Below are positions 1 through 10,602 of a stretch of 64,000 nt of DNA, in pieces. Positions within the stretch are counted from its first letter, which is position 1; every line of letters starts with the position of its first letter. The stretch is from Sphagnum magellanicum (lineage: Eukaryota > Streptophyta > Sphagnopsida > Sphagnales > Sphagnaceae): assembly GCA_021904315.1 (NCBI GenBank), contig CM038925.1:4590501-4654500 (forward strand). Reading direction: 5' to 3'. The translations under genes were made by a program, and so were the position numbers. The notes under the pieces were generated by a model, which was given only the letters and a program-made list of their open reading frames with translations, was not told where the DNA came from and did not search any database.

Positions 1-654
1 GTTTCCTTGGACATGTTGATTAGGTTTTAATCAAGGTTTAGGTTGTATTGATAGGCACAATTTGCAAATATGTCAAGATTTGATCACTAATGTGTCCCAT
101 TGCTTCTTGTTGTGGTGAGATTGGGTTGATGACTAGTAGACCACCTTGTTATATTCATAGTGTGCCTTAGTTTGTTGGCCCTATGAAATGTTTTTATGGG
201 TGCAAGTGCCCTAACCATATAGGTGCAACAACCTTGGGTTTATGTTTTGGGGGTCTGGTTAAATTGTAACAAGTTCAACATCCTTGTAGATTTAGTTTGA
301 ACCATCGCAAATGTATCATCCTTTTGTGATTAGATTTTAAGGTGGATACCCGAGTTAGGGTTTAAGGTTCATCATAGAAATGACACAAGATTCAAGGGAC
401 AAGGACACTATTACTAGTGATTTCACCAAGTGGGGTGCGGTTTAGACCACCCACACCACCTTCATCATCCTCTAAGGGAGATTCTTCAAATTTTGAAACA
501 AATTTTTTTCTAAGGTTTGTCACCCCACCACTATTGTGGGACATGGAGGAAATGTATGGAGCCACCAAAAGGCCCTGTCAATATTCAGGGGTGGTTAGCA
601 CCATTGAGTTGGATGATTTCATTTAGGAGTTTGAATTTGTGTGATATGTAGCAA

Positions 655-1673
655 ATGCATAATCCCCAGCTGTTCACACCCTTCATGGCATGGAAGGGTT
701 TGTTTCAACATTTGGAAGGGCCATTTATGAATGATTATCATGAATTCAAACGTGCCCATGAGATTCAGATTGAGGAGTGGCAATTATATTGGTCTTTCAA
801 TTATGTTTCTATCACTAAGGGAATTGTGGCCCCAAATGGTGCAACAACAATTCTTGACATTAATTTGACAAGTGGAAGTGAAAATGTTAGTGGTAGTGGA
901 GCCATTGGATGTGGTGGAACTATTGGGGGTGGTGGTGTAGGGGCATCCATTAGTACATGGGGTTCATTGCCCATATTTAACCCAGTTGTGTAATTCTTCC
1001 GTGAATTGTGGCAAAATTACCAAAGGGTAAAGATTAAAAAGCTATGGAGTTTGCAATATTTCCAATGTAAACCCCATGAAAGTTTGTAAGAAGCCTATGC
1101 ATGGATGTGTAGGTTGATCATGGTGACACAAGGTGTCATAGAAGCCCCAGCAATCCAATTTTGGTATGGGATCCTAAATAAAGAGCTTAAGTGTTGAGTG
1201 TGGGATGCCATTTTATTGCAACTTGCCCAACCCACTTTGACTAGTGTGTTTTAGTTATAAAAAAGGATTGAGATGAGCATGGTGGAGGAACGAATGGTCA
1301 CCCTTGGGTTTAACAAGGAAAACTTGAGGAATTTTCAACACCATTAAGCCATCAATCATGAGGTCAACCCACCAAGGCTGCACCACCCAAGGCCAAAGGG
1401 GCCAAATTAGATTCAAGTGGTGGTTCCACATCATATTCAATAGAACAAGGTGGAGAAGACAAATGTTTGAGATGTGGTGGGCCTCACAAGAAAAAAAATT
1501 ATCCCAATCCACCACAAGCCACAACTTCCAACCTTAATCCCAACAAAACATGTTCCCATTATCATGCATGTGGGCATGATGTCAATCATTGCTTCACGCT
1601 TGACCTAGAATTACGGCAAGGCCAATCACAAAACACTAATGCTAGTAAGGGCCAAGGTTCTAGGAAAAGCTAG
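655..1673 (+). pseudogene. gag relic of the Ty3/Gypsy element
   Basis: An open stretch at 655-993 is followed, after a stop, by a helical capsid-like segment at about 990-1300 (FFRELWQNYQRVK, then WMCRLIMVTQGV and QFWYGILNKELK). This resembles retrotransposon gag capsids in which a DNA- or coat-like core precedes zinc knuckles. Two cysteine/histidine clusters follow: CLRCGGPHKKKNYP near 1465-1505 and CSHYHACGHDVNHC near 1550-1600. The first has the C-x2-C-x4-H spacing of a knuckle, with its final Cys replaced. A gag protein would package the element RNA. Several stops and at least one frame change make it non-functional. Family assignment is from pattern memory and position upstream of the protease. 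Confidence 0.65.
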
Positions 1674-2559: not shown

Positions 2560-2800
2560 TGTTTTAGTTGAAGGGGGCATCAACATGATGATACCAACCC
2601 TTAGGGTGTCAGTGGATTCTGGTGTTCAACCATTGATGTTGGGCAAAGTTATTTTTAATGGCCTTGGATTGATCGATGCTAATCTTGACCCATGCCCATA
2701 TCACATTTTGACATCCATGGGTGGGTCAGAAAAGGCATGAAGGTTAACCAAGTAGGAAATTGTGATCCAAGTTAATCCTAATAAGCCAGCAGATTATACT
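2560..2800 (+). pseudogene. Retroviral-type aspartic protease relic
   Basis: At about 2605-2640 the frame reads VSVDSGVQPLMLGK, with the catalytic Asp-Ser-Gly (2615-2623) of retropepsins; the flap and C-terminal part follow, with LIDANLDPCPY near 2670-2700. It would cleave the Gag-Pol polyprotein. It lies between gag and the methyltransferase domain, so the methyltransferase sits downstream of protease and upstream of reverse transcriptase. Stops interrupt it at about 2738. The domain is short and degenerate; the call depends on the DSG triad and the position. Confidence 0.5.
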
Positions 2801-3340
2801 ATTATGCGGCCTTGAACAGTGGTCATGCATGTTACGTCTTATGATGTGTTGGTTGCAAGTGTGGTGTTGTACCCCCTAGGGATTACCATTGACTTTTGGG
2901 AAAAAACCACATACTACTGTCTAGGCTGGCAAATAGGAGTTAGTCATAAGGCTTCATTGCTAGTGAGATTCATTTGGGGGGTAAGCAAGGAAATCTAACA
3001 AGTCAACTATGTTGGCTAGATTTTCAAGCCTCCCACATGGACTTGAGTTATTGGAAGGTAATGTCCATGACCAGGATGCACCTCCAAATGGTGAATTAGT
3101 AATGCTAGGGCCATAGGGGATGCCAATCATTTTAATTTCTCCATTGGATCCTAGGTCACCTTATGGGGCACATTGATTAGATTTTAAGCATCATCAAGTC
3201 ATTATATTCATTAGGCTTGGCACATTCTATTATCACCAAGCCCATAGCCACTTGTGAACCTTAATAATGGGCCTCTAAGTTTAAGCCCATTGGATACCAA
3301 TGTTATTTAGTGGGATATTCCCAAGGATGGGATATGCCTA

Positions 3341-4489
3341 CTTGAGTTATTTGGAGGCATTAGTTCTAGATTAGCTGTAATTCTACAGTTGGGCATCTTA
3401 GTCCGGTGATACCATTATGTGGAGAAGGATCCACAAGCCAGACAAGCCTCCATGCGGCATGTCATGATGTTGCAACAAAAGTATCCCCACTTGTTACCAA
3501 CATCGGCCATACATGGTTATCAACATTCCTCACCAAGCATCACCTTGTTAGGAACGCCAGAATTGGGAAAGATTGGGCCAATTGATTTGCTCATTTTTGG
3601 ATGGCCATGTCAAGGTTTTTCACATATGGGTATAGGCCAAAGACTTTTCAATCCTAAGTCGGGGTTATTCTGGGAATTGATTCATGTTGTGCAACATTTG
3701 CAATAGACACTTATGCACCCATGTGCATATTTGTTAGAATATGTCCCACCATTGGGGGATTCTACGCCACTTGTTTTGGCTGGATGGCAACAAATCAAGG
3801 CTTGGATCGACAAGCTAGTGCATGTGGATGTTGCTTAAGTTGGTTCACAAGCTCATTGGTTCTTATGGATGTGGATTAACCTAGCACCACCAAAGGTGAT
3901 CCAATGAGCATATGAGCTCATCCTTAGGTCACCCACATGTTTGGTGGATGACATACTGGATCCAGGATACCATTCATGTGTGGTTCGTCATGATGATCGA
4001 CCACCTTTGGCTCTAGTCAATATGGTTGGCCTTCCATGAATAGCCCTACCAACATTCTTGAGTTTTCCACATTCTTATGCATTTAAGAATGGGGACCCAA
4101 GGATGATTTCGGACCCCTATTCATCCAAGATGGAAGAATCCAATGTAAATGAAAGGGTACGAGCCATGGAATTCCACACTAGCACCACAATTGTGAAAGG
4201 CATATTTGAAGGAGCCTATAGGTAGATTTTGGGGCAAGTTATGGATTTCAAATGCTTCACATGGATTTTTAGTTTGGTATGGGTGCGGAACAAGAAATTG
4301 GTGATGTGGGGATGCCAAGACATGATGGCACCTTTGCACATTTTGCATAGCAATCATAGGTTAACTTCGAATGTTAGGGATGGTCCATCATCCCAACCCA
4401 AAGTACATGTGACTACAAAAACATGGGACCCAGGAATTGGCCTAACAATTATAGGAGGTGAGGTGCATGAAGCACGATGGATAACATGA
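3341..4489 (+). pseudogene. Captured C5-cytosine DNA methyltransferase domain in retrotransposon pol
   Basis: One continuous frame carries the conserved C5-MTase motifs in canonical order. Motif I (SAM binding) is LELFGGI at 3341-3361. Motif II has the acidic VEKDP after 3419. Motif IV is GWPCQGFS with the catalytic Cys codon at 3608-3610. Motif VI is LLEYVPPLGD at 3731-3760, where the usual Asn of ENV has become Tyr. Motif VIII is the VGSQAHWF segment at 3839-3862. A motif IX/X-like end comprises ERVRAMEF near 4160 and LGQVMDFKCFTW at 4229-4264. The order is not rearranged, unlike plant DRM enzymes. Six in-frame stops (3407, 3704, 3836, 3905, 4037, 4223) and the ENV change make this copy inactive. 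In a live element it would methylate cytosines in DNA. It is flanked by protease and RT in the same orientation, so it is part of the polyprotein and not a host gene. Confidence 0.85.
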
Positions 4490-4599
4490 AATTTCATTGG
4501 ATGTTTGCCTTCCATTCGAAGGAATTAGGTCAATTAAGGGGACAAGAGGTTTGAATCATATTGGAAGATGAAAATCTAATTTTCAAATGACCTTACAAG

Positions 4600-5913
4600 C
4601 TAAATGAGGTGGAAAAAACCTTGGTTTAGGTTCGAACATTAGAGTTGTTAAATGTGGGTTTGGTGGAATTGTCTAAAGGTGAATATGTTTCAGCAATAAT
4701 GATGTTAGCTAAGAAGGACATTTTGGGCAATTGGACTTAACATCGCATGTGTGGGGATTACCGTTCAATGAATAAATGGACCCATTCAGACAAATATGCC
4801 ATGCCCCTATTAGAGGAAATCTTTGATGCCCTTAGATAAGACAAGGTTTTCAATACCTTGGACTTTGGGTTTGGCTACCATTAGTTGCCATTAAGGGAGG
4901 GCGATAAAGTCAAAACAACATTTTGGGGGATTGACCCCCATGGGAAGGATTATTTTTACCAATGGAAGTTTTTGCCATTTGGTCTGAAAAATGCCCCTAC
5001 ATAATTTCAAAGGGTCATGAATTGAATTTTGGCAGGTATTTATTTTACCAAATGTTACATTGATGACATCATTGTTTTTAGCTTGACCCTAGGAGATCAT
5101 ATGCACCATTTGCAGAAGGTGTTTGGAAAACTTAAGGAACATAACCTTAAGTTTCATCCGGGCAAATGCCAGTTCTTTCATACTTAGGTGGAATACTTGG
5201 GTCACATGATTTATCCAAGTGGATTGCGGGTTCAAAAGGCAAAGGTTGATGCCATTTCACAAGTTCCCCAACCAATAGATGTTAATTCGTTATGAGCTTT
5301 TATGGGCTTGTGTAATCACTACCGAAGGTTTGTGAAAGGCTTTAGTAGCATGGCCAAACCTTTAACCTAGTTGACACAGATTGACTAGGAGTTCATTTTG
5401 GATGAAGCACAAAAATAAGCCTTTTAGGAATTGAAGGTCGGGCTTTCATCAACTCCCATTTTGAAGCGACCCATTTGAGGACCCCCATTCCAATTACACA
5501 CTAATTGGAACACTGTAGGGTTGGGAGTTGTGCTTACCCAACTTGATGATGATGGTTGAAAGTTTGTGGTGGCATATGCCAATTAGTCCAACAATAAGAT
5601 GGAGGCCAAGTACAACTCATATTTGGGGGTGTGCCTTGTAATTGTTTGGGTTGTTTTGTCATTTTGATGATATTTTTATGGTAGCCCATTCATTTTGATT
5701 ACTAATCATCAACCTTTGAAATTCCTTATGGAATCAGATCAACTCACTAGAAAATTGGCCAAATGGGCATATATTTTGAAAGAGTATGACTTTGATATAA
5801 TTCATAAGCCTGGTAGGGTTAATCGAGATGCAAATGGGTTGAGTCGAAACCCAAGTTCCAATGAGGAGGATACCATAGGGCTCATTGGCATGGTGATGTG
5901 GATTTGGAAGTAG
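4600..5913 (+). pseudogene. Reverse transcriptase and RNase H relic
   Basis: RT palm motifs are visible across short frames: the fingers/palm segment at 4830-5000 (FLPFGLKNAPT near 4972-5005), the catalytic YIDD at 5056-5067 followed by IIVFS, and the thumb (EYLGHMIYPSGLRVQKAK near 5190-5245). The connection and RNase H follow: FMGLCNHYRRFVKGFS near 5300-5345, an RNase H start near 5480, and the typical end HKPGRVNRDANGLSRN at 5805-5850. This matches Ty3/Gypsy pol. Many TAG, TAA and TGA codons interrupt it, mostly at positions where Gln, Arg or Trp is expected. Confidence 0.85.
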
Positions 5914-6189
5914 TACCATGATGGCATGCCTCTCTATGTACCTTTGTACTTTATTACGGTGTTTTGGGGATGTTTTTTAGACGAGTGTGGATGATGGGGA
6001 TCCTCATGATGTGGACATGGAGTTGGAGGGCAATGGTGCCTTAGATATTCATGATGATGCACCTGTCATTGCATATTTGCAAGCAAGTGAAGTTTCGATT
6101 AGATTAACACCCAAGGAAAATGAATATGTTGTGCATAAGGCTAAGTGGTTCAAATGGGAAGGTAGTTGATAGATGGACAAATGAAGGTT

Positions 6190-7030
6190 GTGCCTTGCCC
6201 AAAACAATGTGAAAGCCTTGTGAAGCATGTTCACAAGGAATTGGATCACTTTGGGATCTAATAGACATACAGTTTGTTCCAAACATAGTAATGGTGGTAA
6301 AGGATGCAATTATAAGTTTAGTAATTTGTTTTTAGGTGTATGGTGTGTGATCAAATTTGGGCATCTTTCAATGTACCTACACCTCACCTATAGCCCTTAC
6401 CAATTATGGGGCTTGGGTACCGACGGAATTTGGATTTTTCCGGCCCATTGAGTTTGACACCTCAACATAACCAATATGTTTTAGTTATAAGAAAGCATTT
6501 TTCCAAGTGGTTTGGGTTGGTTCCATTACCAAATCATAGTAGTGAAAGGGTGACATATGCATTTTTGCATAGGGTGTTTAATAGGTTTGGGGCTCCAGCT
6601 AAAATTTTCACTAACCAAAGTACAAAATTCCGTGGAGAATTCCAAAAGTTGTGTGAGAAAACATTGATTGATCATCGCATGATTTCATGAAACCATCCTG
6701 AGGTAAATGGGTTAGCTAAGTGGATGGTGAAAATGGTGAAGCAAGGTTTGCGAAAGTATGGTCTCCACAAGGGCCATATTTGAGATTAGGACTTACAACT
6801 ACCATGGTTAACTATGGGATATAGGTTCAATCAACAAGCTTTTCTTTCATCTTTTTCACCATACTTCTTATTGTTTGGCCATGAATTTGAATTATTAGCA
6901 TTAATTTGACAAGATGCACTAGTAGTAATTAACTTTGATGATCCTGATGTGCGGATTCAAACATGTGAGCATCGAGCCATCTTGTTTTGACATGCTATGC
7001 CCATGGCTATGGAAAAATTTGGCAATTTTC
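6190..7030 (+). pseudogene. Integrase catalytic core relic
   Basis: The core is recognisable at 6400-6690: DFSGPLSLTPQHNQYVLVIR, then HFSKWFGLVPLP, then FNRFGAPAKIFTNQSTKFRGEF. The expected acidic residues are lost: the second catalytic Asp region reads VIRKHFSKW and the TDQG-type motif reads TNQS. A degraded region around 6690-6720 corresponds to the third catalytic site (NHPEVNGLAKW). The tail continues to about 7030 with an FLLFGHEFELLAL segment typical of Ty3 integrase C-termini. The catalytic losses and stops show that the enzyme is dead. Confidence 0.75.
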
Positions 7031-7111
7031 CAACATTGAGATACATTGCATTATGTCATTACATGCGGAGGTGGTTATTTGTTTCAAATTCAGAGGTTTG
7101 AAATAAAAGAT

Positions 7112-7459
7112 TATGTTTACTTGCAACAAACAACACTAACTACTTTAGATGTGACTATAGGACGTGTTATTTTACATGTGCGGAAGGGTTTACCTTATGA
7201 ATGTTGTTGTTGAAGGGCTGAGATGGTCAAACATGGAAAGACCATATGTGCAATTATGCACCATGTCGATGGCCAAATGGACGCATCTTTAGCCGTGGTT
7301 TTTGCTAGCTTACGATGTGTGTTGTGTGGGCAAACTTCAGGAGTCACCACTATGTTGATTTGTGATAAATGTTCTCAAGGTTGGCATATCGGATGTCTCA
7401 TGCCTCTAATGGAAGAAATGCCAGTTGGCAAATGGTTTTGTCCTCGATGCACCCAATAG
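7112..7459 (+). pseudogene. C-terminal pol segment ending in a PHD finger
   Basis: The frame that leaves integrase (DYVYLQQTTLTTLDV from 7109) continues, through one TGA, into a zinc finger at 7316-7456 and a terminal TAG at 7457-7459. The finger shows CVLC, then CDKCSQGWHIGC, then WFCPRC: the C4-H-C3 ligands and the Trp two residues before the last CxxC that mark a PHD finger. PHD fingers commonly bind histone H3 tails. Here it takes the place where many Ty3 integrases carry a chromodomain, so a role in choosing insertion sites is a fair inference. Because the frame is shared with the integrase tail, it is part of the element and not a neighbouring gene. Confidence 0.75.
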
Positions 7460-7696
7460 ACCTAGGTTCTTAGGGTCACATAGTAAAACTAATTTAAGGT
7501 TTTTTTCCATGGTAATTCACATTTGGCTAGGGATTCAAAGGATTACAACTAGGTGACTAATGATGGGGCTCACATTTGCACATGATCTAATGGTCCTTTT
7601 GCCTTGGAACCAAAGTGTTCATCCATAGTGGATTTCCAACAAGTAGTTCTATAATGTTATTTGGTTTAAGGGGACCTTAACCCCAAATAGAGGGTT

Positions 7697-8190
7697 GATT
7701 TAGATGTGGTGTAACATTTAGGGTATTTTTATGTTATGTGTTAAGAGTGTGGTGACAATGATGGTTATAGGTGATGACATAGGAGTGCACAATAACTATC
7801 AAATGTGTTAGTTTAACTATTTAGTTAAGTCTTAATTAATTAGGTGTAAACTAGGTTAGTTAAGCTAATTAGTTGATCTCGAACTAGTTCATGTGTAAAA
7901 GGGGTTCGAGATATTTGTCATGGGATATAATCCCATCTTGTGTGACCTCAAATCAAATTTGGTGATTTGAGATTCTAGAACATAGTTTTTGCTTTGTAGT
8001 TTTTTTTTGTTATGGAAGTGTTTTGGTTTTCTATGTTTTGGGCTTGGATTCTTGAATTGTTGCAAGTGAGTCAATCTTTTGGTTTAGATGTGGTGTACCA
8101 TTCAAGGTATTTTTATGTTGTGTGTTATGAGTGTGGTGACAACAATGATTATATGTGCCAACATAGGAATGCACGACACATATTTACAAA
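7697..8190 (+). repeat. Pair of similar ~100-bp direct repeats, 390 bp apart
   Basis: The segment at 7697-7800 and the segment at 8087-8190 share long matches, including gatgtggtgta, gtatttttatgtt, gagtgtggtgacaa and cataggagtgcac/cataggaatgcac. They may be two pieces of an LTR or of a duplicated downstream block of the retrotransposon. Stops in the first copy and an open frame in the second suggest that the sequence was once coding. Confidence 0.6.
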
Positions 8191-9615: not shown

Positions 9616-10020
9616 TAGCACGTGTGAAGGAAGATAGGCTTGGGTGCTATTTGAAGTCAAGGAGATAGGAAAGAGTTCTTCTTCATGCAGTTATATAGCA
9701 AGAATCATTTTTGAAGTGATTTTCAACTCTGTGAAAAATTATGGGATGGGAGGACTACAGTAGTTTTGCACCCTTGGGTTTTATTTCTTGGCATAATAAT
9801 AATAACAAATTGTCAATGTGTTGTTTAACTAACCTACCATCAGCAGCTCTCTCTTAATGCATCATCATTGTTGTGAGTATATGATTCCAGTTGAAGTCTA
9901 GAGTGACAATTGCAAGCTGCAGCATGGGTGGGTGAACCTCTCTCAGTTAGTCACTTGTGAGTGAGCAGCTTGGCTGAAATTTCAGTTGTTGATCAGATTA
10001 TCATCATCATCATCATCATC

Positions 10021-10602
10021 ATGGCTTGCAGGCACAAGATGCAGGCACTTCTAGCTGCTACTGTGGTTGCAGGGCTTCTCTGTATGTTGGCATTACTCAA
10101 CAGAGCTGAAGCCTCAGTGAGTCACTGCCAGCGACAAACAAAAGTTGCAGGAAATAAATTGATAGATACCCATGAGCTCCATATGAATGAATTCTTGTTT
10201 GTTGGACTGATTTGTACAGATGAGTAGCTAAATTGTAGGGGGATGTGTATATTGATTTCATGTGGCAGTATATCGAGTGTGGTGGATTCACAACATCTTG
10301 ATAATATACCCATTCTCCATCTCGGGAAGTATCCTCTCAGCCAGCTGTGCAAACAATGGCAGAGCTTACCAGTCTACAAGTGTGGATCTCAATACCATCT
10401 AGGCAACAACAACGGGAACTTGGTGGAAAACTTTGGAGAACACTACATCAAGACATGCTCTCCACAAGGATTTGAGCTCTTTGGATCATCCTTCTTCATT
10501 TTTGCTATTTGCACACAGCGGAGTGGCAACATAATTAGCACCTTCTATGACATGAACAACAATTTTTTGAACAACAACAGGATTCTGACTTGGAACTGTT
10601 AA
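10021..10602 (+). CDS. Cyanovirin-N (CVNH) domain secreted lectin-like protein, copy 1, probably broken
   Basis: Exon 1 (10021-10116) encodes a signal peptide: MACRHKMQ, then a hydrophobic core (LLAATVVAGLLCMLALL), then a cleavage-like RAEAS. A GTGAGT donor follows at 10117; a stronger-looking GTATGT is at 10082. Exon 2 starts after tgtggcag at 10268. Its first half reads SISGSILSASCANNGRAYQS, then TSVDLNTI; the second half reads NGNLVENFGEHYIKTCSPQG, then FAICTQRSGNIIST and ILTWNC before the TAA. These are the two half-repeats of CVNH (LxAxC, TSxDLN, NxNGxLxW, TC). The halves are in different frames: TAG at 10400-10402 and a one-base deletion relative to copy 2. With the 10117 donor the exon 1 to exon 2 join is also one base out of phase, whereas the 10082 donor would fit. 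The gene is therefore either inactive or read through by an error. CVNH proteins bind mannose-rich glycans; the role in plants is unknown. Confidence 0.7.

What the first reader, a model, noticed from the sequence alone, without database searches (positions are those of the whole stretch)
3341..4489. DNA methyltransferase embedded in a Ty3/Gypsy retrotransposon
Motifs I, II, IV (PCQGFS), VI, VIII and a IX/X-like end lie in one frame between the protease and reverse transcriptase. Such captures have been reported in dinoflagellate and charophyte-type algal retroelements. I know of no well-described example in a fern-like plant. An element that writes methylation onto DNA could control its own silencing, its target choice or the maintenance of its marks.
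Basis: partly seen in the sequence, partly recalled or inferred. Interest (0 to 1): 0.88.

Follow-up and report, generated by a model that had tools for sequence, protein, structure and literature searches.

The report
Moss retrotransposon lineage carrying DNA methyltransferase
A dead jumping element in a peat-moss genome carries the remains of a DNA-methylating enzyme, and its better-preserved relatives show that the enzyme is a standing part of a family of plant and algal retrotransposons that also carries a histone-reading finger.

Summary
Window 3281-4300 encodes a C5 cytosine methyltransferase (MTase) between protease and reverse transcriptase (RT) of a Ty3/Gypsy element. This copy is dead: 7 in-frame stops, damaged motifs VI and VIII, LTRs 84% identical.

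It is no lone nested fragment. In the same genome (Sphagnum magellanicum by an exact contig-length match: a moss, not a fern) 112 of 117 scored RT hits of this lineage have the MTase upstream. One fetched copy reads gag to PHD finger without a stop (2379 aa). Pooled pN/pS of the MTase in family A is 0.21 (RT 0.30, integrase 0.23).

Relatives occur in Marchantia, Calypogeia, Closterium, Monoraphidium and unnamed environmental sequences. In the RT tree, MTase-bearing rows form one clade (100/100). The MTase precedes RT in 7 proteins and follows it in 20, matching two RT subclades.

DNMT-carrying Gypsy elements are known from Klebsormidium (2018). The bryophyte range, PHD partner and two placements were not seen in the papers searched. 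Activity is untested.

The parts
528..1305 (+). gag-like region (decayed)
   Evidence: tblastn with L022 gag frame, 37-61% identity, E 2.4e-46
2606..2974 (+). aspartic protease region (decayed)
   Evidence: tblastn with L022, 41% identity, E 4e-23; relative L009 matches PF13975 at its cut-off
3281..4300 (+). C5 cytosine methyltransferase domain, DNMT3-like, with 7 in-frame stops
   Evidence: PF00145 at 3569-3754; tblastn E 2.6e-93; stops; motifs
4504..5409 (+). reverse transcriptase (decayed)
   Evidence: tblastn with L022, 57% identity, E 2.6e-114
5413..5880 (+). RNase H (decayed)
   Evidence: tblastn with L022, 60% identity, E 3e-56
6154..7278 (+). integrase (decayed)
   Evidence: tblastn with L022, 49% identity, E 1.5e-103
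7298..7456 (+). PHD finger after integrase, still open, zinc ligands present
   Evidence: phmmer against solved structures: CHD4 E 1.3e-13, ATXR5 PHD E 1.5e-13; translation
7804..8080 (+). 3' LTR, 277 bp; its 5' partner lies outside the window at C19:4587574-4587841
   Evidence: 84% identity between the pair; the same LTR flanks other MTase copies

Best explanation
The window holds a dead copy of an LTR retrotransposon from a Ty3/Gypsy lineage that carries a DNMT3-like cytosine methyltransferase and a PHD finger as standing parts of its polyprotein. Shown: gene order, LTRs, near-universal presence of the MTase among the scored RT hits of the lineage, low pN/pS, DNMT3-like predicted fold, and one RT clade holding bryophyte and green-algal members. 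Inferred: intact copies make the MTase within one Gag-Pol chain, so it enters the particle with RT and methylates the new cDNA de novo, probably at CG, before or at integration. Inferred: the PHD finger on integrase reads histone H3 tails and biases integration to certain chromatin. Together they would let a new copy arrive already marked like silent host DNA, which lowers damage to the host and recognition as foreign DNA. The window copy itself no longer does any of this.
Against: No activity, expression or methylation data here. Family A, the family with the longest open frames, reads ECQ in motif IV where active enzymes usually read PC (28 of 32 copies). Family B' copies are not strongly CpG-depleted (CpG o/e 0.62-0.76), which gives no support to heavy CG methylation and decay in that group. 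Five of 117 RT hits showed no MTase in the stretch examined. The SymbioLINE DNMT tested in the same paper did not methylate DNA.
Confidence: 0.55

Rival explanations
1. The MTase domain is kept for a role other than DNA methylation: folding or assembly of the long polyprotein, nucleic-acid binding in the particle, or RNA methylation.
For: ECQ instead of PCQ in motif IV in family A and in 16 of 92 searched relatives; one DNMT-bearing LINE did not methylate DNA when tested (PMC5890265, section 11).
Against: Cys, ENx and RxR of motifs IV, VI and VIII are largely kept together; the fold is that of DNA methylases.
Confidence: 0.25
2. Several elements took up the same kind of MTase independently: one capture before RT and one between RNase H and integrase.
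For: Two different positions in the polyprotein: 7 proteins MTase before RT, 20 after.
Against: All MTase-bearing RT rows form one clade at 100/100, and element MTases form one clade in both trees; the PHD finger is shared by both arrangements.
Confidence: 0.2
3. A host gene fragment nested in one element copy.
For: None found.
Against: The same arrangement in 112 of 117 scored RT hits; the host enzymes met, L002 and L025, are DRMs with permuted motif order.
Confidence: 0.01
4. The MTase came from a phage or bacterial C5 methylase rather than from a eukaryotic DNMT3.
For: phrog_116 covers the whole domain, E 5.9e-24; phage enzymes reach E 6e-18 at 29% identity; holding elements with phages is not rejected, p-AU 0.23.
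Against: DNMT3 chains lead by sequence among solved structures and by fold; the element profile scores partial DNMT3A above 3 bacterial-type rows and above all 109 re-ordered DRMs.
Confidence: 0.3

Closest known systems
KnitGypsy-Dnmt3 of the charophyte Klebsormidium nitens (de Mendoza et al. 2018, PMC5890265)
   Same: A Dnmt3-related MTase inside the Pol polyprotein of an LTR Gypsy element; purifying selection reported (section 9 read).
   Different: Its sequence is not held here, so kinship is untested; the paper's held main text contains no PHD and no moss; it describes the repeat structure as that of a DIRS element (figure legend), whereas LTR pairs were found here.
SymbioDIRS-Dnmt3 and SymbioLINE-Dnmt of Symbiodinium (same paper)
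   Same: A retrotransposon that encodes a DNMT; the DIRS type methylates CG de novo.
   Different: Different retrotransposon classes, in dinoflagellates.
Animal DNMT3A/DNMT3B catalytic domain
   Different: 22-26% identity in the structural alignments, other motif IV surroundings (PCQ or ECQ against SPCN), and the PHD finger lies at the far end of the polyprotein, not beside the MTase.
Chromodomain Gypsy elements (chromoviruses; recalled, and named in PMC9033089 and PMC6338049 passages)
   Same: A chromatin-reading module after integrase.
   Different: Here a PHD finger, plus an MTase.

Membership tests
Ty3/Gypsy LTR retrotransposons | RT/RNase H most similar to Ty3 | tested here: met
   Family A RT against solved structures: Ty3 Gag-Pol E 6.5e-69, best row
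Ty3/Gypsy LTR retrotransposons | Order protease - RT - RNase H - integrase | tested here: met
Ty3/Gypsy LTR retrotransposons | Paired long terminal repeats | tested here: met
   Window copy, L012 and L022
Ty3/Gypsy LTR retrotransposons | Target-site duplication | tested here: inconclusive
   Flanks of two copies read by eye; none clear, LTR ends not fixed to the base
DNMT3 family | Unpermuted motif order with catalytic Cys | tested here: met
   for relatives; the window copy is decayed
DNMT3 family | DNMT3 catalytic-domain fold closest | tested here: met
   on the family B model
DNMT3 family | Branches inside DNMT3 in a tree | tested here: inconclusive
   One partial DNMT3A row only; joining it is neither supported nor rejected, p-AU 0.33
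DRM (host plant methylases) | Permuted order, motifs VI-X before I-V | tested here: not met
   Element order is I to X; host DRMs are permuted
MET1 and CMT | Branches with host MET1/CMT | not tested
KnitGypsy-Dnmt3 | Same RT and MTase clade | not testable with these tools
   No named Klebsormidium hit or among the 120 rows shown of 654; paper supplements could not be read
PHD finger | C4HC3 zinc ligands and Pfam match | tested here: met
   PF00628 E 5.4e-11 (family A) and 1.2e-8 (family B); ligands seen

The most novel reading that the evidence does not exclude
A single early event put a DNMT3-like writer, and with it or separately a PHD reader, into one Gypsy lineage from which the bryophyte, charophyte and chlorophyte members descend, perhaps the Klebsormidium element too. 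The lineage uses the pair as a self-contained chromatin module: it methylates its own cDNA and steers its own integration.
Probability: 0.3. Interest if true: 0.87.

Novelty: new variant of a known kind. Interest (0 to 1): 0.72.

Why it matters
DNA methylation normally silences retrotransposons, so an element that carries its own methylase asks what methylation does for the parasite. Earlier print presents the Klebsormidium case as an independent acquisition (PMC5890265), and an opinion paper says such transposons are not present in land plants such as tracheophytes (PMC6338049, passages). Here they are numerous in a moss, with long open frames, and relatives occur in Marchantia, a model plant. 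Retrotransposon-encoded methylation could then be studied in land plants that can be grown and manipulated. The PHD finger adds a second chromatin link whose histone target can be measured.

Tried and rejected
Nested host fragment: rejected by the copy survey. DRM origin: not supported by motif order or tree. Klebsormidium kinship: could not be tested. Target-site duplications: read by eye, none clear. CpG and CHG depletion: the nine old W stretches measured and the window copy are low in both (window copy CpG o/e 0.21, CHG 0.26), family B' is not low in CpG (0.62-0.76), family B is low in CpG but not CHG; no Gypsy element without MTase was measured, so nothing is claimed about self-methylation. 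Pfam named no family for the extra tail of P0081 and P0083. The viral-contig scan gave 18 partial matches at 28-46% identity, not followed. Five of the 34 RT hits without a listed MTase showed none in the 1151 bp examined (L049, L052, L062, L063, L073); the stretches were not extended, so loss and insertion are not told apart.

Rows dropped or chosen: in the pN/pS count, copies with gaps or under 90% cover were left out (14 copies given; 12, 13, 11, 14 and 13 used). Trees used chosen rows: 70, 30, 29, 35. In one search, with Ty3 as sole outside row, the partial row P0045 fell outside both placement groups; it fell in the pre-RT group. The 8 control RT rows (L083-L090) are 7 close kin and one other; L088 is partial. 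That their elements lack the MTase is presumed: none is in the fetched stretches, which hold little upstream of RT, and no hit listed lies beside them, but those lists are capped.

Full report
What is there. The window copy is a decayed LTR retrotransposon on the + strand. tblastn with relatives from the same genome places gag-like sequence at 528-1305, protease 2606-2974, MTase 3281-4300, RT 4504-5409, RNase H 5413-5880 and integrase 6154-7278; a PHD finger lies at 7298-7456. The MTase frame holds 7 stops, and motifs VI and VIII are damaged. The 3' LTR is 7804-8080; the 5' LTR lies about 2.7 kb upstream of the window at C19:4587574-4587841. The pair differs by K2P 0.15, against 0.010 for a family A copy (L012) and 0.014 for a family B copy (L022). 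The same LTR lies on both sides of the MTase hits C1:13791764 and C2:29317197, which fall in the window's own clade, and of C3:12545335, which was not placed in a tree.

Host. The genome is 439 Mb. Contig C17 is 19,854,503 bp, the contig length given for Sphagnum magellanicum protein CY35_17G070500 (P0098), and the C17 hit L002 encodes the same stretch as that protein. So this is a peat moss.

Copies. PF00145 gives 124 matches, host exons included. A search with the family B MTase gives 117 matches: four at 94-100% identity, 19 at 59-65% (called B'), and 94 at 36-52%, the window among them at 46%. The tool scores only the best candidates, so these are lower bounds. Of 117 scored RT hits, 83 have a listed MTase within 4 kb upstream on the same strand, and 29 of the other 34 show one by tblastn in the 1151 bp examined: 112 of 117. 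One family A copy has a single frame of 2379 aa from gag to the PHD finger (L009).

Selection. Among 14 fetched family A copies the pooled pN/pS is 0.21 for the MTase (12 copies usable), 0.30 for RT (13), 0.23 for integrase (11), 0.15 for PHD (14) and 0.33 for protease (13). The MTase has been kept about as strictly as the replication enzymes.

A variant active site. Family A reads ECQ in 28 of 32 copies, and 16 of 92 searched relatives read ECQ. Family B (4 of 4 copies) and the four named bryophyte rows read PCQ. The catalytic Cys is present in 82 of the 83 relatives that cover it. What Glu for Pro does to activity is unknown.

Relatives and descent. Two protein searches gave 77 and 18 hits. 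Among proteins that hold both domains, 7 have the MTase before RT (Marchantia, Closterium and P0045) and 20 after it (two Monoraphidium proteins and environmental ones); the Sphagnum families have it before RT. The RT tree, with Ty3 and 8 other Sphagnum Gypsy RTs as outside rows, puts all 20 MTase-bearing rows in one clade (100/100), and the two placements match its two subclades, 94/88 and 100/99. With Ty3 alone the partial row P0045 falls outside both. Element MTases are one clade with support 99 and 98/97. In one search the 38-row group of the pre-RT type has support 97, with other outside rows, the post-RT group nests inside the pre-RT group, so the root within the MTases is not firm. One capture and one later move is the simplest reading. 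Horizontal transfer between algae and bryophytes is not excluded, so the age of the event is not fixed.

PHD finger. It follows integrase in Sphagnum families A and B, in the window copy, in a Marchantia protein (P0061) and in 16 of the 20 proteins of the other arrangement; the algal proteins carry a further tail after it. The nearest solved fingers are CHD4 and plant ATXR5 for the window copy and KMT2D/KMT2C for family A. From memory, ATXR5-type fingers read H3 unmethylated at K4. Two searches for a PHD finger with Gypsy integrase listed 1 and 6 papers; passages of four of them (PMC7602945, PMC4120745, PMC3286476, PMC12325175) did not describe one on a Gypsy integrase; the other two were seen as listings only. 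The plant LTR-retrotransposon survey PMC6317226 holds neither 'methyltransferase' nor 'PHD' in its main text.

Mechanism. Shown: the MTase lies in the same long frame as RT and integrase. Inferred: it is packaged with them and methylates cDNA, as suggested for SymbioDIRS-Dnmt3, whose DNMT methylates CG de novo (PMC5890265, sections 9 and 11 read). Inferred: the PHD finger guides integrase, as chromodomains are thought to do. I give this whole account 0.55.

Novelty. DNMT in a Gypsy element is known from Klebsormidium. [quoted passage not shown] A 2025 survey mentions DNMT3 members in LTR (there called Copia) and DIRS elements of streptophytes and dinoflagellates (PMC12344493, passages). The listings of seven searches and the passages I opened showed no report of a bryophyte lineage; I did not open all listed papers, supplements were not readable, and most subscription papers are not held.

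Noticed in passing
P0072, P0080, P0081, P0083-P0085, P0087, P0088, P0091, P0094: C-terminal tail after the PHD finger: Environmental (algal-type) polyproteins end in a further domain with LDPWAGTG-, NDL- and TSPWF-like motifs that looks like a second class I methyltransferase; Pfam did not name it in P0081 or P0083.
   Followed up: partly
P0083, P0088, P0092: Weak extra domains: G-patch in P0083 and P0088 (precomputed Pfam), Tudor PF21743 in P0092 (E 3.8e-5, below cut-off).
   Followed up: no
window 7695-7799 and 8079-8183: A 105-bp direct repeat (83% identical) sits on either side of the 3' LTR, as if part of the internal 3' end were repeated after it.
   Followed up: no
Sphagnum family A copies and algal relatives: Motif IV reads ECQ rather than PCQ although the domain is under purifying selection.
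   Followed up: partly
P0017: A contig labelled Candidatus Obscuribacterales carries an MTase that falls inside the retroelement clade: probably a mis-binned eukaryotic fragment.
   Followed up: no
window 9961-10227, + strand: An 88-aa open stretch with a signal-peptide-like start, possibly a first exon of a small secreted protein.
   Followed up: no
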